Shown here: positions 323-23,168 of the stretch, piece by piece
How positions within the stretch are numbered: the first letter of the stretch is position 1
Layout of the letters: each line of letters opens with the position of its first letter
IMG/VR virus record: IMGVR_UViG_3300038629_000147
Span: 1 to 25,138 of that record
Strand: one strand, 5' to 3'
DNA from: a virus
DNA: 25,138 nucleotides
Program-made: the position numbers and the translations under genes
The notes under the pieces: generated by a model
Databases searched by the model: none
Seen by the model: only the letters and a program-made list of their open reading frames with translations
What the model was told of the DNA's origin: nothing

Positions 323-2323
323 TTAAACCTCCTCAGTTATCTCTTCACCAGCGTTGACTGAGTGTTGCGTCCAAAGGCTGTCATATTTCCCTACGGCTCT
401 ACACTTGCCGTTCCCATATCCTTGGGCGGGTTCATCTTCCCGATTTAGAGCTAAGTCCAGACCCTCTGCAGTTCCGTAAACATCATGCTCATAGCACCCG
501 AACCAAATACAGTTGTGATCGGGTTCAACCCCTTCCTCTAGGTAAAATTTCCCTTCGTAGTACATAAAATAAATTCGTTTGGAGGGTGCATTTCCATTGT
601 CCACCATTATGAAGATGCCACCGATATAGACCGGCTTGCCATGAAAGTCGTAAATCTTAAAGGTATCAGTCCACACAGCGTCCTGGTCTGTGCCTGGATC
701 GTGAATTATCCAGCTAGTTCCATCGTCAAAAGCGATACTCCAGCGATAAGGGTAAACAAAGACATAGGGTCGAGTGTGGTTGCCAAAACAAGCATCGAGC
801 GAATGATGAGCGGCATCCACCCAATGTGGTGCTTCCACGATGTTATATTTGTTGTCATATACAAATTCGTGGATGAGTGCCATCCAGTTGTCACCGCTTT
901 TATAGCCACGATCCTCAAAGCCAGGGGCGACAACAGCGTAATCTTCAACTAGGAATGATGTCCCATGCTCCTCATACATCTCACTCTGAGTACACGAAAC
1001 TTCATCGCAACCGCTAACGTCCCAACGTGAGGTTTTTGTGTACCATGCACTACTTTTGAACCTGACCTTTCCATCAACGGTAACCTGACTTTCCTGGCTC
1101 CAACTGACAAATTTATCCTTAGACTGGTGACAGACCTGGAAAGTGCGACTGCCAGTAGACCCCGCTGTCGCCAGATCCACAGGGGTCATTGTGCAATCCC
1201 TTATTCCGCTGCATGGGGTACAGATGTCTGTCCAGCGCCACCATTCACAGTAGCCAAATTTGTAGATCAGAATATCCAGATAACAGAAATAATCATAAGG
1301 ATTCCTATCTGCTTGACTCCCGCCCCCGCCTTTCCCATGAGAGCAGCCGAAGCAACAGCCAAGCCCCGCACCATTCGCCCAAAGGTTGTCAGTACAGCAA
1401 CAACCAAGCTGTGAGCTATCATAGTAATACCATGTCTCACCCGAACACTCGCCGTAAGCATCGTCAACGGTCCCTCCAGGCCCGATGTGGAAACCACCAC
1501 AGCCTCCACCTGTGCATTGGCAACCGTAACCACAACTGTATCCGCTTCCCCAATCGGGATTATATTCAGGCCACCCCAACTCTCCGAATCCTGGCCAAAC
1601 TATCGGTGCAGCGGGACATTCCAAATAATCGCAAGTAGGAGTACCCCGCTCGTCATACCAATGAGACTCATTCCCACAGGTATTGATAAGTTCGCTTTCG
1701 CTAGTCTCGTCTATCCTGCCGTCTTTCTCGCTGATAACATCGAGGCCCATGAACTCGGTAAGCATCCCTTCACCTGGGCCGGGGATCGTTCCCTTACTTA
1801 GTGGGCCAGGGAAACTCAGTTCAACCTCCTCCTCGCTGTAAGGAAGGTCGGGATCTTCTAGTTGCCATGCGTGAGGATGGCTCCACCTGTTTCCATTTAA
1901 GCCACAGACAAGAAAGCCCTGAAAAACATCATTGTCGTGCAAGTCGTAGCAGGGTACTGGTTGGCGAAGGGGTAAGTATCTGTCAATTATGTGTTCTCTG
2001 GGCTTTCGCACTATTTGTCCACGCCTTGCTATATAAATTACTGGCATCCCCTCCATAATCTTGATTTCATAACGGCCTGGACGCTGCAAGCTATAAATTC
2101 CAGAGCCAGGAACTCCCCGCAAGTATTCCTGCCAGATTTCCTCTGGAGTTCTCAGGGTCAAATCTGGATATTCTTGGCCAGGATTGGAAACAAGTATTTC
2201 TCTTTCCAATAGTTGATCCACTTCGTTCCTCGCCCTTTTTAGAACTGCGGCCACCTGGGGATCGCTTAAATCCTCATCATCGTCCACATGAACCCAGGCG
2301 TTTTGGTAGTTATGCCAACCCAT
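323..2323 (-). CDS. Large cysteine-rich virion-region protein (666 aa), function unknown
   Basis: The first ~120 residues look like an ordinary soluble domain (helical at 20-45, then GRYEIKIMEGMPVIYIARRG). Residues 264-377 hold 16 cysteines in 114 residues, set among glycines and aromatics, including a CCC triplet at 308-310 and CC..C at 323-327. More cysteines flank this at 216-236 and 398-444. The C-terminal third is rich in Trp, Tyr and His, with extended segments (YVFVYPYRWSIAFDDGTSW) resembling a beta-rich binding domain. The ATG shares one base with the upstream stop (TAATG), indicating coupling. The location after the fibre genes suggests an exposed adhesin or a disulphide- or metal-stabilised surface protein. 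I recognise no family. Confidence 0.85.
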   Translation of the reverse strand: MGWHNYQNAWVHVDDDEDLSDPQVAAVLKRARNEVDQLLEREILVSNPGQEYPDLTLRTPEEIWQEYLRGVPGSGIYSLQRPGRYEIKIMEGMPVIYIARRGQIVRKPREHIIDRYLPLRQPVPCYDLHDNDVFQGFLVCGLNGNRWSHPHAWQLEDPDLPYSEEEVELSFPGPLSKGTIPGPGEGMLTEFMGLDVISEKDGRIDETSESELINTCGNESHWYDERGTPTCDYLECPAAPIVWPGFGELGWPEYNPDWGSGYSCGYGCQCTGGGCGGFHIGPGGTVDDAYGECSGETWYYYDSSQLGCCCTDNLWANGAGLGCCFGCSHGKGGGGSQADRNPYDYFCYLDILIYKFGYCEWWRWTDICTPCSGIRDCTMTPVDLATAGSTGSRTFQVCHQSKDKFVSWSQESQVTVDGKVRFKSSAWYTKTSRWDVSGCDEVSCTQSEMYEEHGTSFLVEDYAVVAPGFEDRGYKSGDNWMALIHEFVYDNKYNIVEAPHWVDAAHHSLDACFGNHTRPYVFVYPYRWSIAFDDGTSWIIHDPGTDQDAVWTDTFKIYDFHGKPVYIGGIFIMVDNGNAPSKRIYFMYYEGKFYLEEGVEPDHNCIWFGCYEHDVYGTAEGLDLALNREDEPAQGYGNGKCRAVGKYDSLWTQHSVNAGEEITEEV

Positions 2324-3318
2324 TATCTTGCGTACCTCAAGATGTAATCCTCGAACCGTTCTTCGTACTGGAGATAAGCCGGATCAGCTTGGCCTCCAGA
2401 GTCTATCCCTGTACCTATGGGTCTAATGACAAGAGTTGGCAATTCCTGATCGAGAGTTGCATGGCCATCAACTATGCCTTCCGAATCCTCGATGAGAAGC
2501 GCTGGTAATTTCTCATCCAGCGTTGCATGGCCACCATACTGGATCGCTACGATCTTGAGAGTCGGCAACTTCCTGTCCAGAGTGGCAGAACCTTGATGCG
2601 TTAGCGTGGCCTCGATCTCCAGCGGAGGAAGGTCACGATCTAGGCTGGCAAGATTCTGATCTGCTATCGATGCCTCGCAGCGTATCCCAGGTAGATTCCT
2701 GGCAAGCCTCCCAATAAGACCACCAGTTACGGTGGCATCGATCTCCAGATAGGGAAGTTTCCCTGCGAATCTCAGACCACTCCTGGCATCGATTTGGAGT
2801 GTCGGCAGAAGTGAACTTAAATTTGCTGCGCCAATCCTTGATATTTGGCCTTCACTTTCGAGATGCGACAGTTTTGCGTCAAGATAAGCTCCAGAATAGC
2901 CCTCGGATCTCAGATCCGGCAAATCTGCGTCCACATCCCCTCGATGGCCGCAGGAGGCTTCTAGTCTGAGCCACGGCAAATAGTTGGGTTCCAGGCCGTC
3001 ACCCAGGTTTCCCCTGAAGTGGGGCTGGACCCGATAGGTGTGGCCCTCATCGATGAGAACATGATAGCAATCATCTACTTTGAGATTGTGGACGAAGACA
3101 TCGAGAACAACTATGGTGGCAACGTGATCGTGCCAGGAATCATCAGGGAAGAGAACTGTGCCAAGGCGAAGTTGGGTTCCAGGCGGCATGAATGTCATAA
3201 AATCTTGGACGGTAATCTCACTATCTGCAACCACCAGATCGTGGGTTTTATCATCCAGCACAATGAGCGATGTTTCCAGAAAATGCACAGGGCTATAAAC
3301 AATAAGATCGATAGCCAT
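2323..3318 (-). CDS. LPxLxI-repeat phage protein (331 aa)
   Basis: From about residue 113 to 300 the protein is a run of roughly ten units of 17-22 residues, each carrying the core LPxLxI followed by an acidic residue or Ala. Examples are LPTLQIDA, LPYLEIDA, LPPLEIEA, LPTLKIVA and LPALLIED, often preceded by (A/S)(T/S)LD.(K/D/E). This looks like a beta-strand repeat of a tail or fibre shaft. The first 95 residues contain two diverged segments resembling the repeat of the two large fibre proteins: THDLVVADSE at 25-34 and HNLKVDDCYHVL at 77-88. The last 25 residues are non-repetitive and acidic/aromatic. It has a good ribosome site (GAGGGGATTAAA-ATG) and is coupled to the downstream gene by TAATG. 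Exact function is unknown. Confidence 0.85.
   Translation of the reverse strand: MAIDLIVYSPVHFLETSLIVLDDKTHDLVVADSEITVQDFMTFMPPGTQLRLGTVLFPDDSWHDHVATIVVLDVFVHNLKVDDCYHVLIDEGHTYRVQPHFRGNLGDGLEPNYLPWLRLEASCGHRGDVDADLPDLRSEGYSGAYLDAKLSHLESEGQISRIGAANLSSLLPTLQIDARSGLRFAGKLPYLEIDATVTGGLIGRLARNLPGIRCEASIADQNLASLDRDLPPLEIEATLTHQGSATLDRKLPTLKIVAIQYGGHATLDEKLPALLIEDSEGIVDGHATLDQELPTLVIRPIGTGIDSGGQADPAYLQYEERFEDYILRYAR
2410..2985 (-). repeat. Coding LPxLxI repeats, about ten units
   Basis: The units recur every 51-66 bases on the minus strand inside the 331-aa gene. The last three (near 2570, 2505 and 2440) are closest to one another, with the HATLD.(K/E)LP core kept. Earlier units are more diverged, consistent with growth from the C-terminal side. 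Confidence 0.75.
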
Positions 3319-3341
3319 TTTAATCCCCTCAGTAAGTTAGT

Positions 3342-3367
3342 CCTGGCGGGATCTCAGCCCCGCCAAG
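3342..3367 (-). other. Intergenic hairpin without U-tract
   Basis: In the 58-base gap between two genes the minus strand can form a 9-bp stem (CTTGGCGGG with CCCGCCAGG, one G-T pair) around an 8-base loop. No run of T follows, so it is a poor intrinsic terminator. It may be an mRNA processing or stability element. Only the pairing is seen; a role is inference. Confidence 0.45.
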
Positions 3368-3376
3368 ACCTAAACG

Positions 3377-4126
3377 CTATGCTCCGTAGTATTGGGGCAG
3401 CGTCAGTTTGAAGGAGTCGATGGTATATGTGGCCCCAACGGTGATGGTAGTCGTGGACATATTCAGATCCGCTCCAGAAGTCCCAACACTTCCATCAACC
3501 CTCGGAAGAACCGTGTCTGCCGCACCGTTGTCGGTGGGGTTAGCCACCAGACGAAAATAGCCAGCGGTTCCGGCTGCAACGCCATCACCCTGCCATGTCT
3601 CACCGCTTGCCTTCTCCATCTCGCCATCTGTAGGATCGTCCTCGAACTCCAGGGCGTTATCGAAAGCACCGTGGACAAAGGCTCCAGCACTCTCGGTTAC
3701 GGTCAGGAGCAATGTTCCTGCAACGGCAGCATCCGGTGAACTCGGCTGAGATCCCGAATAGATGTGCATCTGGCCATCTTTGAAGATGTCCTTCAGGGAG
3801 CCACCCCTGGCAATAGCCACAACGGTTCCGGCCAAAGCAACCTCGGTTCCGGCTACTGTGCCGGTAGCGAAGGTGATGGTTCCGGCCACAACAGCCGTAA
3901 GGACCGCTCCGGTACAAGGCCCATCGTTACTGGTCGATCCCTGGACGAACAAAACGTCACCAGGGGCGAAGCCAGCGGTTATGAAGCCAGTATTGGAATC
4001 TGTAATGGTATCATCACCTCCAGAGCCGTCCACGAAGTCCAAGGTAATGCCAATGATAGCTCCAACAACGGTTCCCTTGAGTCCCAACATCTTGTCTCTG
4101 AGTCCTGTGGAAAGTTTGAGTGCCAT
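3377..4126 (-). CDS. Conserved phage structural protein (249 aa), function unknown
   Basis: The product starts MALKLSTGLRDKMLG and later reads GGSLKDIFKDGQMHIYSGSQP, SGETWQGDGVAAGTAGYFRLVA and GTSGADLNMSTTTITVGATYTIDSFKLTLP. I recognise this as a conserved type of virion-associated protein in podovirus-like phages. It has an N-terminal 'STGLR..ML' element, a beta-rich middle and a 'TIDSF' C-terminal strand. Between the two conserved parts (about residues 20-110) sits a Gly/Ala/Thr/Val-rich beta stretch. The gene follows the upstream stop directly (TAA-ATG) and has a strong GAGGAGGAAGATTAA ribosome site. It is probably a tail or decoration component; no enzymatic motif is seen. Confidence 0.85.
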   Translation of the reverse strand: MALKLSTGLRDKMLGLKGTVVGAIIGITLDFVDGSGGDDTITDSNTGFITAGFAPGDVLFVQGSTSNDGPCTGAVLTAVVAGTITFATGTVAGTEVALAGTVVAIARGGSLKDIFKDGQMHIYSGSQPSSPDAAVAGTLLLTVTESAGAFVHGAFDNALEFEDDPTDGEMEKASGETWQGDGVAAGTAGYFRLVANPTDNGAADTVLPRVDGSVGTSGADLNMSTTTITVGATYTIDSFKLTLPQYYGA

Positions 4127-4498
4127 TTAATCTTCCTCCTCTTCGTTTTTGAGTAACCTTCTCGTTAAAAACTTTGCTAACAGATTCTCACCGCTGTCCG
4201 TTTCACCCTCTCCAGTACGCTGTTGGGATGGTACTTGCCCTTGTTCGGCCCCCGCTACTTCTAGGTTTGCCTGTTTCATCCTCCTTCTGAACGCCAAGGC
4301 CCGGTGTGGCTCCTTGGCTCTTTCTTTTGCTGCTGTTCTCGATCCTGCCGCCATCGCACCCAATTTTGCAGCCCTCACTTCCTTCGATGATGGCATCCAC
4401 CTACCCGAAATAGCCCCGACCATTTTCACTTTCTGGTCGTGGAGATGTTCACGAACGCTGCGTCTATGTCCAGGCGTGATAAACCTACCGTATGCCAC
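4127..4498 (-). CDS. Small basic phage protein (123 aa), GTG start
   Basis: The first 75 residues are Arg/Lys/His-rich (MAYGRFITPGHRRSVREHLH, then KAKERAKEPHRALAFRRRMK). The end is acidic (KNEEEED). The start is GTG, chosen because a textbook GGAGGTGAGATC ribosome site lies just upstream and no ATG fits better. The gene is in the same close-packed run as its neighbours and abuts the next start. A run of three short, strongly basic products (4127-4942) suggests nucleic-acid- or lipid-binding virion components, but I do not recognise any of them. Confidence 0.7.
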   Translation of the reverse strand: MAYGRFITPGHRRSVREHLHDQKVKMVGAISGRWMPSSKEVRAAKLGAMAAGSRTAAKERAKEPHRALAFRRRMKQANLEVAGAEQGQVPSQQRTGEGETDSGENLLAKFLTRRLLKNEEEED

Positions 4499-4502
4499 GA
4501 TC

Positions 4503-4682
4503 TCACCTCCTTCCTAAAATTGACTGATGATACTTAGCCTGATCCCTTCTGCGCTTCAGCACATTGAAGGGAAGTGATTGCTGGCCCAACGTGGGCCTTT
4601 TTGGTAAAGCGTCAAAGCCGTACCGTGGCTTTTGTCGTTGGGACAGACTAAATTTTTTCTGCGTCTTGGTCGGTAAAAACAT
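4503..4682 (-). CDS. Small basic phage protein (59 aa)
   Basis: I place the start at the ATG at 4682, whose A is the last base of the upstream TAA (TAATG), rather than at an ATG 111 bases further up that would overlap the previous gene heavily. The product is 59 residues, MFLPTKTQKKFSLSQRQKPR through LKRRRDQAKYHQSILGRR, with no hydrophobic segment and very high Lys/Arg/Gln content. The family is not recognised. The extended 96-aa reading would add a segment rich in Gln, Arg and Ala that looks like a shadow of the upstream gene. Confidence 0.65.
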   Translation of the reverse strand: MFLPTKTQKKFSLSQRQKPRYGFDALPKRPTLGQQSLPFNVLKRRRDQAKYHQSILGRR

Positions 4683-4942
4683 TAGATCCCTCGCTTGCGA
4701 AACGGTCCCATCTGTTCTCTGCGCTTCGTCCTGTTTTTGAGAAATAGCTCCGGCCCTTCCCCTGGCGCTGCTATCTTCTGGAAATCTGTCCACTTGCGCT
4801 TGAAGGGCTTCCAGGCTGCAACCACCTTGGGATGTCCTGAAGGGTGCATGGTCCTGGCTTTCTCCCAGGCTATTCCCGCCTTCTCCACATCAGAGAATGC
4901 AAGTCCCTGATGTAACTTCCGTGTTCTCATATCCATTGCCAT
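4682..4942 (-). CDS. Small basic phage protein (86 aa)
   Basis: The product is 86 residues with many Lys, Arg and Trp. It starts MAMDMRTRKLHQGLAFSDVE and ends with two basic clusters (FLKNRTKRREQMGPFRKRGI). A ribosome site AGGAGCTTAATCA precedes the ATG. A second in-frame ATG lies two codons down, and either could be used. The gene is 3 bases from the upstream stop and coupled to the next gene by TAATG. It is unrecognised. The residue make-up fits a small protein that packs against DNA or an acidic partner, which is inference. Confidence 0.75.
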   Translation of the reverse strand: MAMDMRTRKLHQGLAFSDVEKAGIAWEKARTMHPSGHPKVVAAWKPFKRKWTDFQKIAAPGEGPELFLKNRTKRREQMGPFRKRGI

Positions 4943-4945
4943 TGA

Positions 4946-5428
4946 TTAAGCTCCTGGTGGTTTGCGTCCTAAGATCACAGGGATTCCGGTGATTTGATCT
5001 ATACTGAAATCCACTCCACCCACATTGTCGATACGGACCATCCAGTACCGGCCCTTGCCGTCACGGCCTATCCCCACCTTCTGGCCGTGTGACGAGAGAT
5101 CGGCAAAAATCGGCTCCAGGTTGAAGCTCCTCTCGTTATCCTGATCGTCTTTCACGGTCAAGACCAAATCACCTTCGGATTTGTACCCGATATACATGGA
5201 TCTCCAGCGCTTCTGGTTCGCTATGCCAAAGTCGCTGGTGGCCAGTTCAAAGAAAGCCTCGATCTGAGTGGCATCGTCCCGATCCCCGCTATCGAGTACG
5301 AAGATCCCGCTGTCATTGCCACCCAGGTGAACCCCATTGAACTTGCACATGGAGTTGAAGTTGTAGTTTGCATACTGTGAGACTCTGTAGCCTCTTAATT
5401 CCATGCAAAGGCCCAGGTAATCCGGCAT
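4946..5428 (-). CDS. Conserved phage virion protein (160 aa), function unknown
   Basis: Distinctive segments are YANYNFNSMCKFNGVHLGG (about 19-37), the acidic LDSGDRDDATQIEAFFELATSDFG, NQKRWRSMYIGYKSEGDLVLTV, and GKGRYWMVRIDNVGGVDFSI near the end. From memory of podovirus-like genomes this matches a conserved structural protein in which an acidic segment is followed by 'QKR.R..YIG' and 'GRYW.FR..N..G.DFSID'. I have no name for it. It probably forms a beta-sandwich and may belong to the tail tip or fibre attachment. It starts with ATG after an excellent AGGAGGGAATC site. Confidence 0.85.
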   Translation of the reverse strand: MPDYLGLCMELRGYRVSQYANYNFNSMCKFNGVHLGGNDSGIFVLDSGDRDDATQIEAFFELATSDFGIANQKRWRSMYIGYKSEGDLVLTVKDDQDNERSFNLEPIFADLSSHGQKVGIGRDGKGRYWMVRIDNVGGVDFSIDQITGIPVILGRKPPGA

Positions 5429-5437
5429 GATTCCCTC

Positions 5438-5755
5438 CTAAACAATCTTCGCCCTGAACTCGGCCCACTCCAGGCCGTTGGTATAGTTGGCATCGTAAAG
5501 CCTGACCTTGGATAAATAGGTCGCACTCCTCAAATTGATGATTTTCTGGAGTAGCCCAAGAGTGAGATCCAACTGGCCAGTAGCTCCGTTAGTAGACCAA
5601 TCGAAGATGCCAGAGTGATACTGGCTGTCGATTGTGACATCACCGATGGTAAGGACCATCCTGGTCGTGCCGGTTATGTCAACCGCAGACCCATTCTCCC
5701 TGAGTTCGAGAGAGTTTACGTTGTCCCTGTTTTTGTAGATTGTCTCAGTAATCAT
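5438..5755 (-). CDS. Small beta-rich tail/baseplate-region protein (105 aa)
   Basis: The layout (IYKNRDNVNSLELRENGSAVDITGTTRMVLTIGDVTIDS, then FDWSTNGATGQLDLTLG, then TYLSKVRLYDANYTNGLEWAEF) follows the pattern of small phage proteins in which 'N.L.L..NG..VDLTG.T...L..G' is followed by an FDWS/GL-W pair of strands. Such domains resemble the N-terminal assembly domain of baseplate or tail-fibre-region proteins, which is weak family knowledge. The ribosome site is AGGAGCATTCA. The gene directly follows the 593-aa repeat fibre, so it may dock or cap a fibre. Confidence 0.75.
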   Translation of the reverse strand: MITETIYKNRDNVNSLELRENGSAVDITGTTRMVLTIGDVTIDSQYHSGIFDWSTNGATGQLDLTLGLLQKIINLRSATYLSKVRLYDANYTNGLEWAEFRAKIV

Positions 5756-5764
5756 TGAATGCTC

Positions 5765-7546
5765 CTACGAATGGTGTATGGTTCTCTCCGTAGTTAAACT
5801 CACCAGATACCTTTCAACCGTCCGGCTCCAAATGCTCGGATCGACAATATCGCCCAAGGCTGAAGGGACAATATGAGTGATCGTAATTTGAGCCGAAATC
5901 ACCGCATCCTCACAGGAGTCAACGGTAAGAATGTGCAACTGAGTTATTGCGCTAAGATCATCGGTTAGGATATGCTCACAGGCAGCAACCACTAAGTCGA
6001 TAGCTCCCAAGACGGTAAGGATTAGGTCACCCTCTCCATCGTGTGCGTGGGACGCAGAGGCCACCGTTAGGATGTGTTTCTGAGTAAGGCCGATAGCAGA
6101 GGGTAGGTTTTCGTGAAATGCGTCCTGAACGGCTAAATCGAGTCCTGACGTTAGGTTAATTTGAGGAGACTCAACATCATGCCCACTACCGGCAACGATC
6201 AGTTCATGCTCTTGAATAAGGGCGAGAGGCCCAGGATCTTCTGTTCGGTGCATCGAATCAGCGACTACGAGATCGACCACGCCCTCGGAGGTGAGCGTTA
6301 TGGGGCCAGAGTCGATAACGTCATTTTCACAGTCAGCGCAAGTCAAGATGTGTTTCTGGATAAGAGCAAGTGGGCCTACATCCTCCAGCAAGCTAAAACA
6401 ATCTGCGACAAGAAGTGCATGGATCTGGAGAAGCGTAATCGGTCCACCGTCCTGGGTTTCGTGATAGCAGTCGTTGACGGTAAGTCCCACGGCCTGTGTT
6501 ATAGTTACGGGGCCATCATCGAAGATGTCACTACCCGCTGATGCTACTGTGAGGTAGTGGACCTCCTCAAGAGTTAGATCAGTCGGAGTGACGGCATGAT
6601 CGTGAGGGCCGTCTGCTACAGTAAGAATGTGCTTCTGTGACAGATCCAGATCGGTTGGGGTGGTAAAAAGGTCATGGGTACAATCTACCACGGTCAAAAT
6701 GTGTTTTTGGGTGAGAGTAACCGGCCCTTCATCCTCGACTGCGTGATAGGGATCAGGAGTGATGGTCAAAGTGGTAGATATTGCAAGAGTCAGATCAGTC
6801 GGAATAACTTCATTCAAGTGGAAACAGTCTGCCAGCGTTAAGATGTGTTTCTGAGTAAGCAAGATCAGATCATCGACATCATGCGGGTGGAAATTGTCGG
6901 CATCCTGCTCCAAGATGTGTTTTTGAGTTAGGAGGAGTAATTCGCTCGGTACGTTTTCGTGATAAGCATTATTCACCACAAGATCGATACCAGCGGATAC
7001 AACGTCCACAGAGACAGCCAACTGCAAGGGACTACCGACAGTCCCGATGTTCCCCTGGCTATCCCACACCCCAAAATAGTATGTGCTGCCGGAAGCACAA
7101 CCCGACAAATCTATGGCCCACCAAACCTCGAAACGATCACCTTTGGTGCTAACCTGAACTAACTGGGCTGCTTGACTGTCGTGAGCATATCCATCAGTCG
7201 CATCATTAAGGCAAAGCCCTGTGTTGTTTGCCGTAAACCAAGCTGTGTTCGGAGGGGTAAGGTCCGTATAATTCATATTGGCAGTACCGGCCATAGCGCA
7301 CTCAGACGCAACTAAAGTTAGCCAGCTACCGGCATCTTTTTTAACTTCGAGAGTCACGGTGGTAGGTACAGTTGTCTTTCCGCAGTTGCTACAGGACAGT
7401 TTTATGCCAACCCAAATCATGTCGTTGAGATCCCAAATCGCAAGAGTAGGCGAATTGGCGTGTTTGGCCGGAGTGGCCAAGTCGGCACTCACATGGGCGT
7501 TGTCAACTCCATCATCACCCACGGCATCAACGTAATAGGTTCCCAC
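5765..7546 (-). CDS. Histidine-rich repeat fibre protein (593 aa), GTG start
   Basis: Residues 1-180 form a beta-rich N-terminal domain (YYVDAVGDDG, IWVGIKLSCSNCGKT, WWAIDLSGCASGSTYYFGVW) with several cysteines. Residues ~185-555 consist of about 16 copies of a ~23-residue repeat with core HILTVADCxH........ITLTQK. The last ~38 residues are unique but share SLTTxR with the end of the 1785-aa protein. The GTG start immediately follows the upstream TAA and is served by TTGGAG; there is no better ATG. The repeats look like a beta-solenoid or beta-strand shaft of a tail fibre. Partner and receptor are unknown. It is clearly a paralogue, by repeat, of the larger protein two genes upstream. Confidence 0.85.
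   Translation of the reverse strand: MGTYYVDAVGDDGVDNAHVSADLATPAKHANSPTLAIWDLNDMIWVGIKLSCSNCGKTTVPTTVTLEVKKDAGSWLTLVASECAMAGTANMNYTDLTPPNTAWFTANNTGLCLNDATDGYAHDSQAAQLVQVSTKGDRFEVWWAIDLSGCASGSTYYFGVWDSQGNIGTVGSPLQLAVSVDVVSAGIDLVVNNAYHENVPSELLLLTQKHILEQDADNFHPHDVDDLILLTQKHILTLADCFHLNEVIPTDLTLAISTTLTITPDPYHAVEDEGPVTLTQKHILTVVDCTHDLFTTPTDLDLSQKHILTVADGPHDHAVTPTDLTLEEVHYLTVASAGSDIFDDGPVTITQAVGLTVNDCYHETQDGGPITLLQIHALLVADCFSLLEDVGPLALIQKHILTCADCENDVIDSGPITLTSEGVVDLVVADSMHRTEDPGPLALIQEHELIVAGSGHDVESPQINLTSGLDLAVQDAFHENLPSAIGLTQKHILTVASASHAHDGEGDLILTVLGAIDLVVAACEHILTDDLSAITQLHILTVDSCEDAVISAQITITHIVPSALGDIVDPSIWSRTVERYLVSLTTERTIHHS
5880..6990 (-). repeat. About 16 coding copies of the 23-residue HILTVADC-H repeat
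   Basis: In the minus-strand translation of the 593-aa gene, units begin with HILxx or xDLVV, then (A/V/N)D(C/A/S), and most have His about ten residues after the first His. The second half is usually one of DDGPITLTQ, TPTDLTL, VDDLILLTQ or VPSELLLLTQ. Unit length is 21-25 residues, with small insertions such as LGA or SEGV between some units. Confidence 0.85.
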
Positions 7547-7846
7547 TTAAAGCTCCAATTCCTCGAAGTTGACCTTTCGTAGCTCCATAGCACAATAATC
7601 TTCAATACACTCTGGAGCGGATACCGCACAGGAAAACGGCCTGTCGCTCCCCAGGCTGCACAACGTAGCTCCGCTATCTGGATGGACTCTTACCTTGGTG
7701 CATCTTCCCTCATCATCGGCAAAGACAAAGCTCTCCCCCCTGTCCAGGCAGCATTCACCACAGTAGACGCAATCCTTCTCGACAACCCACCATTGCTCCA
7801 ATGTCTGAATGGCATACATCTTGTTATCTTTGAAAATCGTTATCAT
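7547..7846 (-). CDS. YkgJ-like cysteine-cluster protein (99 aa)
   Basis: The product carries C26xxC29xxC32C33, then C49, C63 within CSLGSDRPFSC (C63, C73), and C80/C85. This is the spacing of the YkgJ/CxxCxxCC family of putative zinc- or iron-chelating (possibly Fe-S) proteins. The RPFxC element is characteristic. Family members are usually ~100-250 aa, so this is a short version. Its ATG overlaps the stop of the 1785-aa fibre gene (ATGA), and its TAA abuts the next fibre gene. It is therefore co-expressed between two fibre genes, which suggests a role in fibre folding, modification or metal loading. That role is inference. Confidence 0.75.
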   Translation of the reverse strand: MITIFKDNKMYAIQTLEQWWVVEKDCVYCGECCLDRGESFVFADDEGRCTKVRVHPDSGATLCSLGSDRPFSCAVSAPECIEDYCAMELRKVNFEELEL

Positions 7847-10800
7847 GCGCTCCCTGCCTTGATTATGGTCCTTTGCGAAACTATCTTACCGAAAGACCTT
7901 GCCGTTGTGAGCGATACCAGCGACAAGTGATCGAGATCACCCTCCAGGGTTGGGATCGTCACGTTGTCAGCCGTGTGGAGGATGTAAGTATCGAGAACGG
8001 TAAGGTTGTGAAGCTGAGTCAAAACAACGGCATCTGAAACATGAACATGAGAGATACCGCCCACGGCCAACAAGTGATCTTGGAGGAGGAGGATCGTGTC
8101 GGAGGTGACTTCGTGAGTCAGACCTTGTACCGTGAGCGGCACTATCATGGCCACGTTGTCAGAATCCAGTTCGTGGTCACAATCTGCCACCAGGAGTTCG
8201 TGTTCCTGGGCTAGGACTACGTTATCGGCTAGATGTTCGTGGTCACAATCTGAAACGGTGATGATGAGTTCTAAGGTGGGAGTTTCTGCATCGTGAACGT
8301 GGAAGGAATCGTTCAGACCCAAGATATGAGTCTGAGTGAGATCAATAAATGCAGGAGGAGCATGAATGTGGTAGCAACTCGCCACGATCAGAGCGATTAC
8401 CTGGACCAGATCAACATTCTCTACGAAATGCTCATGGCTGGCATCGGCCACTACGAGATCCACCTCACCCAGGCCAAGAGTTATCGGCCCATCATCCTCC
8501 AGGAGATGTTCGCAGTCGGCAACAACGAGATCGACCACCGAAATATGGACAATGGTTATTGGCCCATCATCTTCTAAGACATGAAAAGCACTCGCTAATG
8601 TCAGGATATGTTTCTGAGTTAAGGTGACCGGCCCTGGATCGAAAACCGTGTGTTCACAGGAGGCCACCACCAGATCGATTGCCCCCACAGTAATCGTTAG
8701 CGGTCCATCATCTTCCAAGACATTGAAAGCATCGGCAACGGTAAGTATGTGGAGTTGAGTCAGGGCTACAGGGCCGGTATCCTGCAGGACATTCTCACAG
8801 CTTGCCACCGTTAAGATGTGAGTTTGGGTAAGCGCCAGCAACTCAGTCACATCCTGAAGGTGGAAACAGTCAGCGACAGCAAGGTCGTGTTCCTGGGTAA
8901 GCGCTATGAGGCCGTCAGCGAAATGGTCGTTTTCGCAGTCTGCTACGACAAGATCGTGTTCTTGGGTGAGAGCAAAGGGGCCAGGATCTTCTAAGACATT
9001 GAAAGCATCCTGCATGACCAGAACGTGAGTTCCAGTAGTCTCCAGGGTGAGATCGGTGGGGTTTACCACATGGGGGTGATAATTATCTCCGTCCATCGTA
9101 AGGATATGGACTTGGGTCAGCGCCAGTAGCTCATCCACATCGTGAAGATGGAAGTTGTCGGCATCCATGACCAGGGTATGTTCCTGGGTCAAGGCCAGTA
9201 ACTCATCAACGTCATGGAGGTGGAAGTTGTCTGCGTCCATCGTCAGGGTATGCTCCTGAGTCAAAACAAGGAGTTCGGTCACATCATGCAGATGGAAACA
9301 GTCGGCCAGGATAAGAATGTGCGTCTGAGTTAGGAGGATCAGATCGTCAACATCGTGGGTATGGAAGCAATCAGCCACAACAAGGTCGATGGCCCCGACC
9401 TCAAGAGTCAAGTCCGTAGGGGCAACCTCATGGACATGGAAGTTGTCTGCATCCATAGTGAGAATGTGGATCTGAGTCAGAGCTACCGGAGCATCGTCTT
9501 CTAAAACATTGAAAGGATCAGCGACAGTTAGGTACTGCTTCTGAGTAAGGGCTATCGCAGAGGTATCGATGTCGTGTTCAGCATTCTGGACGGTTAGCCA
9601 AACTTTCTGCTCAAGAGTGATCGGGCCATCATCTTCTAAAGCATGATTCCCAACGTGAACAGGAATGGGAGCCTGGGCTATTAAATTCTCTCCGGTCCCG
9701 ATCTCGTAGTAGTCGATCTTAACCATTGTATTAGCATAAAGAATGAGAGGAACCAGAGAGCCGTACTCGAAGTTCCAATCAGTCTCAGTTACATCTAAAT
9801 CCCACCCGGCTGGCTCCTCGGTATCCGCAGCCCATACCTTGATCTTGAAATTCTGACCATTGGCTCGAACCCTGGTCCAGTACCAAGTATCTATACTCAT
9901 AGCCTTGGCAGCGACATTCCCTCCAGGTTGCGTAGTATCGGCCCATCTCCGTTGAAAGGTGACCTGATTTCCAGAAATGTTGTGAAAAACCATGTAACCG
10001 CTGTCTATGGTACTCCCATATAAGTGTGCTCTGAGAGCAAGGGCGAAGCCAAGGGTTACGTTGTTATTTGTCTGCCACCGTGTAAGCAGATCAAAATCGT
10101 CAAAGTGCCAACCTGAATAATTAGCTTGTAGCGGCCTCCATATCGGAAGCTCATCAGGCCCAACGCCTCTGTAGACAGATATGGTCCAACCATTTAGGTT
10201 TAGATACCGGCCACCGATGCAATCAGACAGGCTCTCTTTTACCTCATAGGCGTAATAGGCAGCGTCATAAGCAACTTCTGTCCAATCACTTGGCTGTGTG
10301 TCGAAAGCGTAGCCCCTGAAATCCCAGAGATAATCCTGGGAGAAGGTAAGATCCGTACTTGTCATGTGGTGGTGGGCATCGTCCACCAGGAGATCGTGGG
10401 GGCTTACCTCGTCAAGGACTATTTCACCCCTGATCTCTACCTTCTTTACGGCCACCCAGGTTCTTGCCCCAAAAGTTGTATCCTGATTTCCATACGTACC
10501 CTGCCTGTAATCCAGATACTGTTTGCCAGCGAGGGGATATTTACCAGCCTCAACGATCATTGTTTCATCGCCCGACCAGTTCTGGCCACACCAACCCATG
10601 TACTTCATGTTCGCAACGGCTGCAGGAGACAATTCCTCGCTGCTCAAATTCCCCTGCATCTCGACATGGATAATGTAATCTTCATCTGCGTCCAGATTGA
10701 CCTCGATCCAATCACTCCAGGCCCATTCGGTACTGTTCAAGTCTATGGCAGGATTCCCTGTGTTGAAGGTAATCCTGGTGGGAGTCTCCCTGTACTGAGG

Positions 10801-13200
10801 GCTATCGTCTGCAAGCATCCGACCTATGCTCATGCCCTTTATGTCCATCCCAAAGCCCCCTGCGGTAGTTGTCAGGATGCGAATATATCGGCCTGATCGG
10901 GCAAGGTGAATGCTTTTGAGTTTGTATCTGTTGTGATGATAGGTAGTTGCGGTCAAGCCACCACCTTCCCAAGCGCTATCACCAGTAGGGATTTTGGGAT
11001 CAAAAACCGTTACGGTCACATAGTCTGCAGCTTCGCAATCGTGAGCATGGTAATTATCTGCGTCCATTATGAGATTGATGGCCTCTGGCTCTTGTTCTAC
11101 AATCGTGATCGGGCCAGGATCTTCCAGAACATTGAAACAGTCTGCCACCGTGAGATTATGCTTTTGCGTAAGGGCTACAGCGCTGGTTTCAATGTCGCTT
11201 CCAGAGTCGGCCACCGTGAGATTATGCTTTTGCGTAAGGGCTACAGCGCTGGTTTCAATGTCGCTTCCAGAGTCGGCCACCGTAAGGTACTGCTTCTGAG
11301 TGAGCGCAAGGTCAGTAGGAGTAACTACGTTCTCATTGAAGGCATCATTCACCAAGATCGGGATGATCGGGACAATAGTTAAGTCTGTGGGGATAACTAC
11401 GAACTCATGGTAGTTATCTGCGTCCATTGCAAGGGTGTCGATCCTGACAAGGGTTAGATCGGTAGGAGTGACTTCATTTACATTGAAGGCATCGTTGACA
11501 GCTAGGCTGTGCTTCTGAGTAATGGCGAGGGGATCGTCAACTTCATTTACATGATAGTTGTCAGCGTCCATTACAAGATTGTGGACTCCCGCACCCGCCT
11601 CAAACTTGTAAAAGACAACGATTTTGGAGCTAAATATAAGGTCTGCTACCTTGACATCTGTATAGAGATCCTGGGCCGTTCCAGGCATAACCATTGCTTC
11701 GATGGGAAGGAGGCCAGGAAAGTTCAATCCTAGAGTGGACCAAGTTGATTTCGCATCATCGCTACCCATTATGTCGTAAGTGTCATCCCCCCAGGTCGAG
11801 TATCCAATTTGGAAATAAGCTCCAGAACTGCCATCGTTGTGCAATACCGCTATCCAGTAAACTGTCGTGTCAATAGACTCGTAGGGGGTATCAAAAAGAC
11901 CAATGTGCCACGCACTAGCAACTTCCAACTCAGCTACCGGAATTTGACCATCAGCGAGTGGTGAGCCAGGATCGGCCCCTGCAGCGTGGAGTTGCAAATC
12001 TATCTCAGTTGGTACGCTGGAAGAATAGCCAAAAACGCCCATGCCTATAATTTTACCGCCCTCGGCTGCGAACTCTGAAGCGACAGCTTCCCATGTCGCA
12101 CCATCATAAAGATCCCAACTTCCTTGCATGTTACTAAAAGTTTCAATGGCATGGCCGGTATGGCCAAGGATTTGGTGGGAAATCCCTCCATCAGGGGCTT
12201 TAATACGGCTCCCATCTAGCTCGTTGTCGGTGGCATACTCACAAGCGCCTTCAAAGGTAGCCCCGCTCGAACAATCCACAGTATGAACGAAGTGTAAGTA
12301 CCCACCATCTTCATCCCATTCGTTGGGGTCATATCGAGCAAAATACTCTTGGTTTCCTGCGCCACTTACCTGTTCAGAGATCATCTCCATTTGGGTCATA
12401 AGCTGGAGAATGTTGCTAACATCGGTTTGAACTATGTAGAGGTAAGCGTTGTAGAGAGTGACCGGATCTTTATCATCCTCAGTTAAGATTCGGATGCGAT
12501 ACCAAGCCTTATCCACCATCGTAAACGTAGTGCCAAAAGAGGCATGATGTACGGTCCCATCGCCTGTGGAGAAAACCTGGACGGTTTCCAACTGCGTCCA
12601 GTTGACGTTATCCTGGCTGTATTCAATGTCTAGCTGAATGTAATCCTTGTAGCTCTCACATGAATATGTGAAATAGCATTCGACTGTTGGGGTGGGTTCC
12701 CAAAAGCGGGAATCATAGTAAATATACTTTGGGGAAGCATTGGTCAGGGCTTCGGTTGAAACTGTCATGTAAGCCCCGATTTGGGGATGAGAAACCGTAT
12801 CGGTGATCTCGGTTGCATGACTCTGAAGAATAATTATTTTAACGTCAGCAATGGCTCCATTGGTAAACCAGATAGCGCTGGCTCCATCCCTGGTGTAAGC
12901 CCTAACCGTGCCGGTGGGCGGCAGATTAGTTATGGGAGCGGATCTGTAGCGTGTCCAACCTGAAGAGTTGGGTGGAATAGTTATGGAACTACCTGTGTAG
13001 GCTGTACTTCCATCGAAAGCGCAGAGGTCTACGGTTAAAGCCTCAGAACCATGACCGTTTTGGGCAGTCACTTCAAGGTGGTAGGTTGCGTCACTATACT
13101 TGGCTAACTCAATATAGGCCCACCCAGGCAGTCCTTGGGCAGAGACTCCGCCATAATCGGTAACTATCATGCATATTTCTTGTCGGAACTTCTGCGTCAT
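7843..13200 (-). CDS. Giant histidine-rich repeat fibre/adhesin (1785 aa)
   Basis: The protein is a mosaic. Residues 1-~540 are beta-rich modules (VDLCAFDGSTAYTGSSI; RILTEDDKDPVTLYNAYLYI; GGKIIGMGVFG) resembling carbohydrate-binding or fibre-head domains. Residues ~540-730 hold about 8 copies of the 23-residue repeat. Residues ~735-935 are a second non-repeat domain (ARSGRYIRILTTTAGGFG, TEWAWSDWIEVNLDADED). One degenerate repeat follows at ~935-952. Residues ~957-1177 look like a concanavalin/LamG-type jelly roll (VTFQRRWADTT, WYWTRVRANGQNFKIKVW). Residues ~1182-1747 carry about 24 more repeats, and the end is a 38-residue tail with SLTTAR. ATG directly follows the upstream TAA with GGAAGG before it. 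It is probably a host-recognition fibre; the receptor is unknown. Confidence 0.85.
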   Translation of the reverse strand: MTQKFRQEICMIVTDYGGVSAQGLPGWAYIELAKYSDATYHLEVTAQNGHGSEALTVDLCAFDGSTAYTGSSITIPPNSSGWTRYRSAPITNLPPTGTVRAYTRDGASAIWFTNGAIADVKIIILQSHATEITDTVSHPQIGAYMTVSTEALTNASPKYIYYDSRFWEPTPTVECYFTYSCESYKDYIQLDIEYSQDNVNWTQLETVQVFSTGDGTVHHASFGTTFTMVDKAWYRIRILTEDDKDPVTLYNAYLYIVQTDVSNILQLMTQMEMISEQVSGAGNQEYFARYDPNEWDEDGGYLHFVHTVDCSSGATFEGACEYATDNELDGSRIKAPDGGISHQILGHTGHAIETFSNMQGSWDLYDGATWEAVASEFAAEGGKIIGMGVFGYSSSVPTEIDLQLHAAGADPGSPLADGQIPVAELEVASAWHIGLFDTPYESIDTTVYWIAVLHNDGSSGAYFQIGYSTWGDDTYDIMGSDDAKSTWSTLGLNFPGLLPIEAMVMPGTAQDLYTDVKVADLIFSSKIVVFYKFEAGAGVHNLVMDADNYHVNEVDDPLAITQKHSLAVNDAFNVNEVTPTDLTLVRIDTLAMDADNYHEFVVIPTDLTIVPIIPILVNDAFNENVVTPTDLALTQKQYLTVADSGSDIETSAVALTQKHNLTVADSGSDIETSAVALTQKHNLTVADCFNVLEDPGPITIVEQEPEAINLIMDADNYHAHDCEAADYVTVTVFDPKIPTGDSAWEGGGLTATTYHHNRYKLKSIHLARSGRYIRILTTTAGGFGMDIKGMSIGRMLADDSPQYRETPTRITFNTGNPAIDLNSTEWAWSDWIEVNLDADEDYIIHVEMQGNLSSEELSPAAVANMKYMGWCGQNWSGDETMIVEAGKYPLAGKQYLDYRQGTYGNQDTTFGARTWVAVKKVEIRGEIVLDEVSPHDLLVDDAHHHMTSTDLTFSQDYLWDFRGYAFDTQPSDWTEVAYDAAYYAYEVKESLSDCIGGRYLNLNGWTISVYRGVGPDELPIWRPLQANYSGWHFDDFDLLTRWQTNNNVTLGFALALRAHLYGSTIDSGYMVFHNISGNQVTFQRRWADTTQPGGNVAAKAMSIDTWYWTRVRANGQNFKIKVWAADTEEPAGWDLDVTETDWNFEYGSLVPLILYANTMVKIDYYEIGTGENLIAQAPIPVHVGNHALEDDGPITLEQKVWLTVQNAEHDIDTSAIALTQKQYLTVADPFNVLEDDAPVALTQIHILTMDADNFHVHEVAPTDLTLEVGAIDLVVADCFHTHDVDDLILLTQTHILILADCFHLHDVTELLVLTQEHTLTMDADNFHLHDVDELLALTQEHTLVMDADNFHLHDVDELLALTQVHILTMDGDNYHPHVVNPTDLTLETTGTHVLVMQDAFNVLEDPGPFALTQEHDLVVADCENDHFADGLIALTQEHDLAVADCFHLQDVTELLALTQTHILTVASCENVLQDTGPVALTQLHILTVADAFNVLEDDGPLTITVGAIDLVVASCEHTVFDPGPVTLTQKHILTLASAFHVLEDDGPITIVHISVVDLVVADCEHLLEDDGPITLGLGEVDLVVADASHEHFVENVDLVQVIALIVASCYHIHAPPAFIDLTQTHILGLNDSFHVHDAETPTLELIITVSDCDHEHLADNVVLAQEHELLVADCDHELDSDNVAMIVPLTVQGLTHEVTSDTILLLQDHLLAVGGISHVHVSDAVVLTQLHNLTVLDTYILHTADNVTIPTLEGDLDHLSLVSLTTARSFGKIVSQRTIIKAGSA
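7960..9655 (-). repeat. Main block of the 23-residue repeat (about 24 copies)
   Basis: Consecutive units in the minus-strand translation read for example HILILADCFHLHDVTELLVL, HTLTMDADNFHLHDVDELLA, HILTVADAFNVLEDDGPLTI and HELLVADCDHELDSDNVAMI. Many units carry an HxH pair (HLH, HVH, HTH, HPH, HEH, HIH) at the same place in the unit. Neighbouring units with HLHDVDELLALTQ near 9120-9300 are nearly identical, a sign of recent expansion. Units toward the C-terminus (7960-8300) are more diverged. Confidence 0.9.
11000..11585 (-). repeat. First block of the 23-residue repeat (about 8 copies)
   Basis: Units include HNLVMDADNYHVNEVDDPLA, HSLAVNDAFNVNEVTPTDLT, IPILVNDAFNENVVTPTDLA and two identical HNLTVADSGSDIETSAVALT-type units. 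This block is separated from the main block by two non-repeat domains, so repeats and globular domains alternate along the fibre. Confidence 0.85.
11144..11275 (-). repeat. Perfect 66-bp tandem duplication
   Basis: Bases 11144-11209 and 11210-11275 are identical over 66 bases and encode the same 22 residues twice (ending ..ADSGSDIETSAVALTQKHN..). The next unit starts with the same seven bases at 11276 and then diverges. This is the youngest repeat event visible in the window. It is in frame and keeps the repeat register. Confidence 0.95.
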
Positions 13201-13783: not shown

Positions 13784-14209
13784 CTAGGTGGGATCACGCA
13801 GGGTGATCGTCCAGGCCGGGGTATTGACCTTGTTTCCACCTGTCAAGTTTTGCTGAGTGCAGGACGTAACATAAAGCACGTTCTGCAAACTCGCAGACGA
13901 TGAATGCCATTGAACAAGACCCACATGGCTGGCATTTGCGCTCGATGCAACACCGTTGACTGACATCGATGTCGCTACGCTAACCTGAAGCTCCCGACCA
14001 TTGGGAGAACCCTCGCCAGGGCCAGTATAGTTAGCCGAAGTAATGGTTTTCTCAGCCAACCGGAACCCGCTAGAGTCCTTATCCTTCTGAGCATTGGAGT
14101 ATGCCGAAGCTCCTACCGGCTCTGAGGTCAGCACCACTAGCCGTGTAGCGTTCGACTTGATGTAGCCCAACGCCTCGTCCAAAACATCATTGTGTACGTT
14201 CTTGCCCAT
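13784..14209 (-). CDS. Conserved podovirus-type virion protein (141 aa)
   Basis: The start MGKNVHNDVLDEALGYIKSN and the end LYVTSCTQQNLTGGNKVNTP followed by AWTITLRDPT match a conserved small structural protein that I recall from podovirus-like genomes. It has an N-terminal helix 'VLD.AL.YIK.NA', a beta-rich middle with SGRE/NGREL-type turns, and a 'YVT.CT.Q.LT.GN.VN.PAW' end. Its biochemical role is not known to me. It follows the 301-aa gene with a 23-base overlap and has a strong GGAGGTGACAGAAG ribosome site. It is the last gene before the 13684 terminator. Confidence 0.85.
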   Translation of the reverse strand: MGKNVHNDVLDEALGYIKSNATRLVVLTSEPVGASAYSNAQKDKDSSGFRLAEKTITSANYTGPGEGSPNGRELQVSVATSMSVNGVASSANASHVGLVQWHSSSASLQNVLYVTSCTQQNLTGGNKVNTPAWTITLRDPT

Positions 14210-18093: not shown

Positions 18094-18342
18094 CTAAGGG
18101 TTGGTCGTGATCGTAAGTGGCCCATCATCTTCAAGAACGTGATAGGCACTCTCTGCCTTGGCATAAGAGTCGTACATCACAAACCCGATACATCGGTCAC
18201 GGTCCCTGGAGACAGGGTTGATCCCTAGCATTCGCAGGGTTGCTGCGTTATCCAGGCTCTCGACAAATGTCTCCAGTAGAGCCTGGACCTCTTCGAGAGT
18301 ACCCAAGGGGGTCACATACGTTGAAACCGCATAGTTGGCCAT
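18094..18342 (-). CDS. Small capsid-neighbour protein with C-terminal fibre-repeat unit (82 aa)
   Basis: Residues 1-58 are paralogous to the 59-aa product downstream (MANYAVSTYVTPLGTLEEVQ ... NPVSRDRDRCIGFVMYDS). Residues ~63-82 add SAYHVLEDDGPLTITTNP. The HVLEDDGPLTI piece is the same half-repeat found many times in the 1785-aa fibre about 5-10 kb away, and the underlying bases are also close. The gene lies 9 bases after the major capsid gene with an AGGTGGATC-ATG start. Its function is unknown. The fusion of a fibre-type repeat to a head-region gene is unusual and could display or dock that unit at the capsid. Confidence 0.85.
   Translation of the reverse strand: MANYAVSTYVTPLGTLEEVQALLETFVESLDNAATLRMLGINPVSRDRDRCIGFVMYDSYAKAESAYHVLEDDGPLTITTNP
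18105..18150 (-). repeat. Orphan copy of the fibre repeat half-unit
   Basis: The minus-strand translation gives AYHVLEDDGPLTI. The matching plus-strand bases (GGCCCATCATCTTC followed by an A/G-rich stretch and TGA) recur in the giant fibre gene, for example near 8560 and 9630. It is a single unit at the C-terminus of the 82-aa gene and is absent from the 59-aa twin. Confidence 0.85.
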
Positions 18343-22819: not shown

Positions 22820-23168
22820 CCTCGACCTCACGGTAGGCACAGGTGCAGACTTCCCTGTTCTCATCACCCCTCGGTTCACCTATGCAGCAAACAAACGGCC
22901 TCGACTTGCCCAAGGGACAGTATTCAACACCCTTCTCATTGACCGTCAAATAGAGACATTCCTCCGGCTTATCTTCTTTCCTGGGAAGTCGCAGCCCATT
23001 GATGTAGGGCGCTTTGCAGCAAACGCCACACAAGTTGCAGCGAACAACCTTGACCAGCGGTTTCTTTTGTCCTAAATGGAGTTGCATAACTCCGATAAGT
23101 TCGGTTTCGGCCAGCAAGAAAAGACGTTTGTTATACGCATACTTCGGGATCTCGAAGGTCACTCTCAC
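22785..23168 (-). CDS. YkgJ-like cysteine-cluster protein (127 aa), GTG start
   Basis: It contains C44xxC47xxC50C51, C71, and C84 within YCPLGKSRPFVCC (C84, C94, C95), followed by C108/C110. This is the CxxCxxCC...C...C...RPxxC pattern of the YkgJ family of putative zinc/iron-chelating proteins. The N-terminal ~40 residues (MRVTFEIPKYAYNKRLFLLA) are an extra beta/alpha part. It starts with GTG overlapping the previous stop (GTGA) and runs into the pyruvyl transferase-like gene. It is a paralogue, by motif, of the 99-aa protein between the two fibre genes. A redox or metal-handling helper of the neighbouring enzymes is plausible; no substrate is known. Confidence 0.75.
   Translation of the reverse strand: MRVTFEIPKYAYNKRLFLLAETELIGVMQLHLGQKKPLVKVVRCNLCGVCCKAPYINGLRLPRKEDKPEECLYLTVNEKGVEYCPLGKSRPFVCCIGEPRGDENREVCTCAYREVEDELPDSEYKQP

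What the first reader, a model, noticed from the sequence alone, without database searches (positions are those of the whole stretch)
5765..13200. An unnamed ~23-residue histidine-rich repeat family builds two giant phage fibres
Seen: about 33 copies in the 1785-aa product and about 16 in the 593-aa product, core HILTVADC-x-H...(D/E)xGPxxLTQ, strands alternating with short turns, interrupted by globular domains. Family knowledge: short beta repeats form shafts of phage fibres. I cannot match this repeat to any named domain family. Inference: a solenoid shaft carrying lectin-like heads for host binding.
Basis: partly seen in the sequence, partly recalled or inferred. Interest (0 to 1): 0.75.

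Follow-up and report, generated by a model that had tools for sequence, protein, structure and literature searches.

The report
Histidine-rich repeat shaft of phage fibres
Two large proteins of this uncultured bacterial virus are built mostly from a short histidine-rich repeat, absent from the family libraries tested, which turns out to be widespread in uncultured phages; it most likely forms the shaft of surface fibres that carry sugar-binding heads for gripping host cells.

Summary
A repeat model finds 32 units in the 1785-aa protein and 16 in the 593-aa protein, about 23-24 residues apart. It also finds units in two more proteins: the N-terminus of the 331-aa protein and a half-unit forming the C-terminal tail of the 82-aa protein beside the capsid gene. 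Pfam, PHROGs, NCBIfam and PDB sequences give no match. The window repeat is a divergent form of a widespread 22-residue unit (VxDAxHxHxADxxxLTQxHxLx): about 104 arrays and 1,144 distinct units in IMG/VR, yet only one sequenced cultured phage (Microcystis phage Mae-JY22). An HMM built without the window or its relatives hits the large protein at E=4e-8; the best of 200 shuffles reaches 0.8. The arrays have a near-constant partner: a homologue of the window's 141-aa protein lies within 2.5 kb, on the same strand, of 47 of 48 testable arrays. Inserted domains shuffle between the two fibres, and one looks lectin-like by fold (low-confidence model). Best reading: a receptor-binding fibre shaft with heads on the virion surface. 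Solenoid versus intertwined trimer is unresolved. Metal binding through HxH is not obligatory, because whole arrays use QxQ or SxS.

The parts
7843..13200 (-). 1785-aa repeat-bearing fibre protein (BIG)
   Evidence: ORF; 32 units by window HMM; independent HMM E=4.3e-8
11590..13200 (-). BIG N-terminal region (aa 1-537), no detectable relatives other than the 100% identical contig
   Evidence: jackhmmer over fetched loci
11029..11589 (-). BIG first repeat array (aa 538-724), includes a recent 66-bp unit duplication (98% identical) at 11139-11283
10399..11028 (-). BIG inserted globular domain (about aa 725-934); a relative sits inside the SMALL homologue of phage G002
   Evidence: tblastn 9e-7, alignment A4 24% identity
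9646..10368 (-). BIG inserted domain (aa 945-1185), concanavalin-A-like lectin fold predicted
   Evidence: homologues in L012 (two copies), L014, L020, L121; Foldseek PDB hits mostly ConA-like, E 5e-5, prob 1.00, from a low-pLDDT model
7951..9645 (-). BIG main repeat array (about aa 1186-1750)
7846..7950 (-). BIG C-terminal tail with short R-T-h-x motif shared with many family members
7547..7846 (-). 99-aa cysteine-rich (CxxCxxCC-like) protein between the two fibre genes, conserved in L012 and L014
5765..7546 (-). 593-aa repeat-bearing fibre protein (SMALL): N-terminal domain, then 16 units, then ERTIHHS tail
   Evidence: homologues in L012/L117 and L014/L121
5867..6988 (-). SMALL repeat array (aa 187-560)
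13784..14209 (-). 141-aa partner protein of repeat arrays (p141)
   Evidence: homologue within 2.5 kb, same strand, of 47/48 testable arrays
18094..18342 (-). 82-aa protein whose C-terminal tail (18097-18156) is one repeat half-unit
   Evidence: tail conserved in L012, L013, L014 and L129
3043..3300 (-). repeat units at the N-terminus of the 331-aa protein
   Evidence: window HMM; homologue in L117 with HTH/HGH units, window HMM E=9e-4

Best explanation
BIG and SMALL are surface fibres of a (probably short-tailed) phage. Shown: each is an N-terminal domain followed by tandem units of one repeat, almost free of Lys and Arg, interrupted in BIG by globular domains, one of them lectin-like by predicted fold, and ending in a short shared C-terminal motif; they are encoded in the virion structural module after the connector genes and next to a partner gene (p141). 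Inferred: the repeats are beta-structured and stack into a stiff spacer or shaft, the conserved positions (V1, H6, H8, A10, L13, L15, Q17, H19, L21) packing like against like between rungs or between chains; the lectin-like domains are heads that bind host-surface sugars; p141 attaches or assembles the fibre; the single repeat unit at the C-terminus of the 82-aa protein docks to the fibre by the same packing. Unit number and head domains change fast between relatives, as expected of a host-recognition device.
For: Repeat confirmed in both proteins. Homology to a widespread phage array family shown in both directions: HMM without window or relatives hits BIG at 4.3e-8, best of 200 shuffles 0.8; window-only HMM hits a canonical array at 4e-62. 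SU10-type adaptor, portal, major head protein and Hc3 connector in the window. p141 linkage 47/48 forward, 32/39 in the reverse test. A sequenced Octadecabacter phage has a p141 relative just upstream of an annotated tailspike. Lectin-fold hits. Flanking virion proteins are mostly about 50-80% identical to their relatives in L012 and L014, BIG and SMALL only 23-34%, with head domains moved between them. A diversity-generating retroelement lies in the same module as an array in L067. Repeat half-unit tail on the 82-aa protein conserved in relatives and, in L129, encoded between p141 and the fibre. Lys+Arg 0.3% over 1,144 units.
Against: No member has a solved structure or tested function. In L046, L036, L032 and L077 the array lies next to portal, capsid or minor head genes, so it may be a head fibre. 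The lectin-domain model has mean pLDDT 45.6. No enzyme or receptor is identified. SMALL on its own is not significant with the independent canonical HMM (E=0.19) and joins the family through BIG and intermediate arrays.
Confidence: 0.72

Rival explanations
1. The arrays are capsid (head) fibres or decorations rather than tail fibres: flexible appendages that concentrate phage on mucus or cell-surface sugars without being the primary receptor-binding device.
For: Arrays between portal and major head protein (L046), next to the major head protein (L036), portal (L032) and a minor head protein (L077); in the window the 82-aa protein beside the capsid gene carries a repeat half-unit tail.
Against: In the window, L012 and L014 the arrays follow the connector genes; in L048 and L067 they are in tail modules; p141 sits beside an annotated tailspike in an Octadecabacter phage; the 82-aa gene lies beside the fibre in L129. 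Gene position is weak evidence either way.
Confidence: 0.3
2. The shaft is an intertwined trimer, with HxH pairs from three chains coordinating metal ions along the axis, as in the T4 gp37 needle.
For: HxH at positions 6/8 in 70% of 1,144 units at regular 22-residue spacing (sampling was biased towards HAH by the search pattern); T4 gp37 precedent cited in PMC11705849; AF2 monomer confidence is only moderate and varies 32-65 between models.
Against: Whole arrays use QxQ (L026), SxS/CxS (L032), FxL (L145) or HxQ instead; by a loose regex only about a quarter of window units keep HxH (9/37 and 3/17). No PDB sequence match, T4 gp37 included.
Confidence: 0.25
3. The shaft is a single-chain parallel beta-solenoid with one 22-residue unit per rung and a ladder of stacked His/Gln inside.
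For: AF2 model of nine canonical units: three strands per unit, pLDDT 65, pTM 0.53; best PDB fold neighbours are right-handed beta-helices; one BFVD phage protein at TM 0.57, prob 1.00; array-wide like-for-like substitution at positions 6 and 8.
Against: No PDB fold match at E<=0.001; AF2 is reported to build unrealistic solenoids for repeats (PMC11795689); units in G002 shrink to about 16 residues, a large change for a fixed rung.
Confidence: 0.4
4. The repeats are flexible low-complexity linkers between heads, without a regular fold.
For: Unit length varies from 16 to 26 residues; AF2 confidence is moderate.
Against: Strong position-specific conservation over 104 arrays (L15 87%, H6 89%, L21 79%, Q17 68%) with alternating hydrophobics, unlike disordered linkers.
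Confidence: 0.08

Closest known systems
T4 gp37 receptor-binding tip (HxH iron needle)
   Same: Phage fibre, beta-rich, regularly spaced HxH motifs in most units of the wider family
   Different: No detectable sequence relation in PDB searches; HxH often replaced by QxQ, SxS or HxL; far longer arrays; trimer and metal not shown
Alteromonas phage R22Y gp12 (PMC11705849)
   Same: Four HxH motifs spaced exactly 22 residues
   Different: The residues between are of another type (HxHxIEDIxGL...); canonical repeat HMM gives E=24 on it, so a separate family
Beta-helical phage tailspikes
   Same: Predicted parallel beta coil; a p141 relative lies upstream of an annotated tailspike in Octadecabacter phage DB virus 2
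   Different: No sequence or significant fold match; tandem near-identical units rather than irregular coils
Concanavalin-A-like lectin / LamG domains of phage and bacterial adhesins
   Same: Inserted domain 9646-10368 matches VIP36, ERGIC-53, CBM66 and galectin folds; Mae-JY22 carries a weak Laminin_G_3 match upstream of its array
   Different: No Pfam model hits the window domain; binding residues not examined
Microcystis phage Mae-JY22 XAI95683.1 (hypothetical protein)
   Same: Same repeat (8 units at 22-residue spacing), p141 partner encoded nearby, similar C-terminal RALxI motif
   Different: Much smaller; one putative lectin domain followed by one array

Membership tests
22-residue VxDAxHxHxADxxxLTQxHxL phage array family (defined here) | Profile match by an HMM built without the window | tested here: met
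   BIG E=4.3e-8, best of 200 shuffles 0.8; SMALL alone 0.19, joined through BIG
22-residue VxDAxHxHxADxxxLTQxHxL phage array family (defined here) | p141-like partner gene nearby on the same strand | tested here: met
   Window p141 at 13784-14209, upstream of BIG; 47/48 arrays overall
22-residue VxDAxHxHxADxxxLTQxHxL phage array family (defined here) | HxH at positions 6/8 in most units (a common, not a defining, feature: variable across the family) | tested here: not met
   About a quarter of window units by a loose regex; also replaced array-wide elsewhere in the family
T4 gp37-type HxH iron needle | Sequence relation to solved gp37 chains | tested here: not met
   hmmsearch of A1 and A2 against PDB sequences: no hit up to E 10 and 1
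T4 gp37-type HxH iron needle | Trimer with octahedral metal sites | not testable with these tools
   Only monomer prediction is offered
Parallel beta-helix / beta-solenoid | Regular coil of stacked strands | tested here: inconclusive
   AF2 pLDDT 65, pTM 0.53; known AF2 bias (PMC11795689)
Parallel beta-helix / beta-solenoid | Significant fold match to solved beta-helices | tested here: not met
   No PDB match at E<=0.001, TM at most 0.40 among those listed
Concanavalin-A-like lectin domain (window 9646-10368) | Jelly-roll fold match | tested here: met
   35 PDB matches at E<=0.001, those listed mostly ConA-like lectin or carbohydrate-binding folds, prob 1.00; model confidence low
Concanavalin-A-like lectin domain (window 9646-10368) | Pfam lectin/LamG model match | tested here: not met
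   No such Pfam hit
Concanavalin-A-like lectin domain (window 9646-10368) | Carbohydrate binding | not testable with these tools
   Needs a binding assay
Phage receptor-binding fibre | Encoded in the virion module, fast-evolving, swapped domains | tested here: met
Phage receptor-binding fibre | Present on the virion and binds host | not testable with these tools
   Needs proteomics, microscopy and adsorption assays

The most novel reading that the evidence does not exclude
The arrays define an undescribed fibre system of uncultured phages: a new repeat shaft with a like-on-like ladder of His or Gln, a dedicated partner protein (p141), and small proteins that dock through a single copy of the same repeat unit, giving modular fibres whose length and sugar-binding heads can be changed unit by unit.
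Probability: 0.35. Interest if true: 0.65.

Novelty: new variant of a known kind. Interest (0 to 1): 0.52.

Why it matters
It describes a repeat that recurs in many uncultured phages but is missing from the standard libraries, so the genes carrying it are left as 'hypothetical'. With the partner gene p141, it gives a two-part sequence signature for finding adhesion fibres in dark phage genomes, and a cultured phage (Mae-JY22) in which the structure and role can be tested directly.

Tried and rejected
Family libraries for the repeat: only sub-threshold chance hits (NosD, PWP3A-B_N, HycI). Kinship with Alteromonas R22Y gp12, suggested by its 22-residue HxH spacing: rejected, different sequence and HMM E=24. 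Most of the 24 genome-contig pattern matches were chance; only L102, L108 and L109 (betaproteobacterial MAG contigs) hold clear arrays of several units. The structure job for the lectin domain gave low confidence; only its fold-class match is used. Literature searches found no description of this repeat in the open-access library. The array itself as target of the retroelement in L067: rejected, the variable repeat ends a neighbouring 724-aa ORF.

Full report
OBSERVATION. The window is a 25,138-bp virus record with no tRNA genes. BIG (7843-13200, minus strand, 1785 aa) and SMALL (5765-7546, minus strand, 593 aa) are open reading frames at the stated coordinates. An iterated profile made only from window sequences marks 32 units in BIG, a few of them weak, and 16 in SMALL. 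Self-identity peaks at lags 23 and 24 and exceeds all of 2000 shuffles in both proteins. One 66-bp unit is duplicated at 98% DNA identity, a direct sign of growth by unit duplication. The same profile marks units at the N-terminus of the 331-aa protein and a half-unit at the very end of the 82-aa protein next to the capsid gene.

THE REPEAT IS A WIDESPREAD FAMILY. A tblastn search of 50,697 phage records found one relative, Microcystis phage Mae-JY22, whose repeats are 22 residues long with an HxH pair. DNA patterns for this unit then found arrays in many IMG/VR contigs. Over 104 arrays and 1,144 distinct units the consensus is V-x-D-A-x-H-x-H-x-A-D-x-x-x-L-T-Q-x-H-x-L-x, with Lys+Arg 0.3% in total. 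The window version has one or two extra residues in the turn after position 12 and has lost the second His in most units. Homology does not rest on resemblance: an HMM built without the window and its relatives hits BIG at 4.3e-8 while the best of 200 shuffled sequences reaches 0.8, and the window-only HMM hits a canonical array at 4e-62. SMALL alone is not significant with the first HMM (0.19); it belongs through BIG, with which it shares the window profile. No library names the repeat: Pfam, PHROGs and NCBIfam gave only sub-threshold chance hits for the window or for canonical members, and PDB sequence searches with profiles gave nothing.

PARTNER GENES. The 141-aa protein (13784-14209) has a homologue within 2.5 kb and on the same strand of 47 of 48 non-redundant arrays with enough flanking DNA; 23 further arrays had too little flank to judge. 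In reverse, a scan for p141 alone gave 39 new contigs that could be scored; 32 hold an array and 7 do not (contigs with short flanks and no array were set aside, and the p141 profile was trained on array-linked members, so this fraction is an upper estimate). In Octadecabacter phage DB virus 2 a p141 relative lies upstream of an annotated tailspike. Among 50,697 phage records only these two phages had a p141 match. The 82-aa protein keeps its repeat-like tail in L012, L013 and L014, whereas a tail-less paralogue lies beside it in the window, L012 and L013; in L014 both copies carry a tail. In L129 the tailed copy lies between p141 and the fibre gene and carries about one and a half units.

VIRION CONTEXT. 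The window encodes a portal C-terminus, a major head protein, an SU10-type adaptor and an Hc3 head-closure protein, which suggests a short-tailed phage, though no terminase or tape-measure gene was recognised in the fragment. BIG and SMALL keep their place in L012 and L014, but while flanking virion proteins are mostly about 50-80% identical they are only 23-34% identical. Head domains move: the domain at BIG aa 725-934 and the lectin-like domain of BIG have relatives inside the SMALL homologue of phage G002. In G002 many units shrink to about 16 residues. In L067 an array shares a module with a reverse transcriptase and a template/variable repeat pair in which 17 of 19 differences fall on adenines, the hallmark of a diversity-generating retroelement; the variable copy ends a neighbouring 724-aa ORF, not the array. 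In other contigs arrays lie among head genes (L046, L036, L032, L077), so the general statement is 'virion surface', not 'tail'.

STRUCTURE. AlphaFold2 on nine canonical units with 51 aligned arrays gives three strands per unit, pLDDT 65, pTM 0.53, and five models ranging from 32 to 65. PDB fold neighbours are beta-helices, none at E<=0.001. One viral predicted structure (Podoviridae sp. ctU557) matches at TM 0.57 and prob 1.00. Because AF2 is reported to produce unrealistic solenoids for repeat sequences (PMC11795689), this supports beta structure but does not prove a solenoid. The alternative, an intertwined trimer with metal-binding HxH pairs like the T4 gp37 needle, is suggested by the HxH motif but not required: whole arrays carry QxQ, SxS or FxL at those two positions. 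What both models explain is like-for-like stacking at positions 6 and 8, although tandem duplication would also make arrays uniform. The lectin-like domain model is poor overall (pLDDT 45.6), yet its fold matches are mostly ConA-like lectins and carbohydrate-binding modules.

VERDICT. Observation confirmed. The interpretation as fibres with lectin-like heads is supported by indirect evidence; the solenoid is undecided; the head or tail location is undecided. The repeat is an undescribed family (within the libraries and open-access papers searched) of a known kind of structure, the phage fibre.

Noticed in passing
window 18094-18342 (-); L012:10976-11227, L013:1256-1507, L014:7321-7599 and 7592-7858, L129:5614-5919: A small protein family ends in one fibre repeat half-unit (SAYHVLEDDGPLTITTNP in the window); a tail-less paralogue lies next to it in the window, L012 and L013. 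Its gene moves between the capsid region and the fibre cassette.
   Followed up: yes
L017:3866-4900: A relative with the same flanking genes has only 266 bp between p141 and the 105-aa gene, holding what looks like the C-terminal remnant of a fibre gene: a natural deletion, or an assembly collapse at repeats.
   Followed up: partly
L067:8300-10109 (-): A diversity-generating retroelement (RT, 113-nt template and variable repeats, 17 of 19 mismatches at A) in the same module as a repeat array; the variable repeat ends a neighbouring 724-aa ORF.
   Followed up: partly
window 7547-7846 (-) and 22785-23168 (-): Two paralogous cysteine-rich CxxCxxCC-like proteins, one lying between the two histidine-rich fibre genes and conserved there in L012 and L014; a role in metal handling is a guess.
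   Followed up: no
window 2323-3318 (-), L117:3313-4359: After its fibre-type units the 331-aa protein carries a different tandem repeat, roughly 21-25 residues, of the type ATLDxxLPxLxIxA.
   Followed up: no
L079, L041, L065, L068, L109 and others; window 7846-7950: Many array proteins end in a short repeated motif of the type R-x-h-x-h every 9-12 residues (e.g. ERRVLAIVAESRWLAIAAERRLLTIH), shared in reduced form by BIG and SMALL.
   Followed up: partly
L121 (G002:C1:7500-14200), 1347-6038 (-): A 1564-aa SMALL homologue with units shortened to about 16 residues (EAYHLVVTSDPLWWVQ), lacking the LTQxH segment.
   Followed up: no
L026, L029, L032, L023, L145: Arrays in which the HxH pair is replaced throughout by QxQ, SxS/CxS or FxL.
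   Followed up: partly
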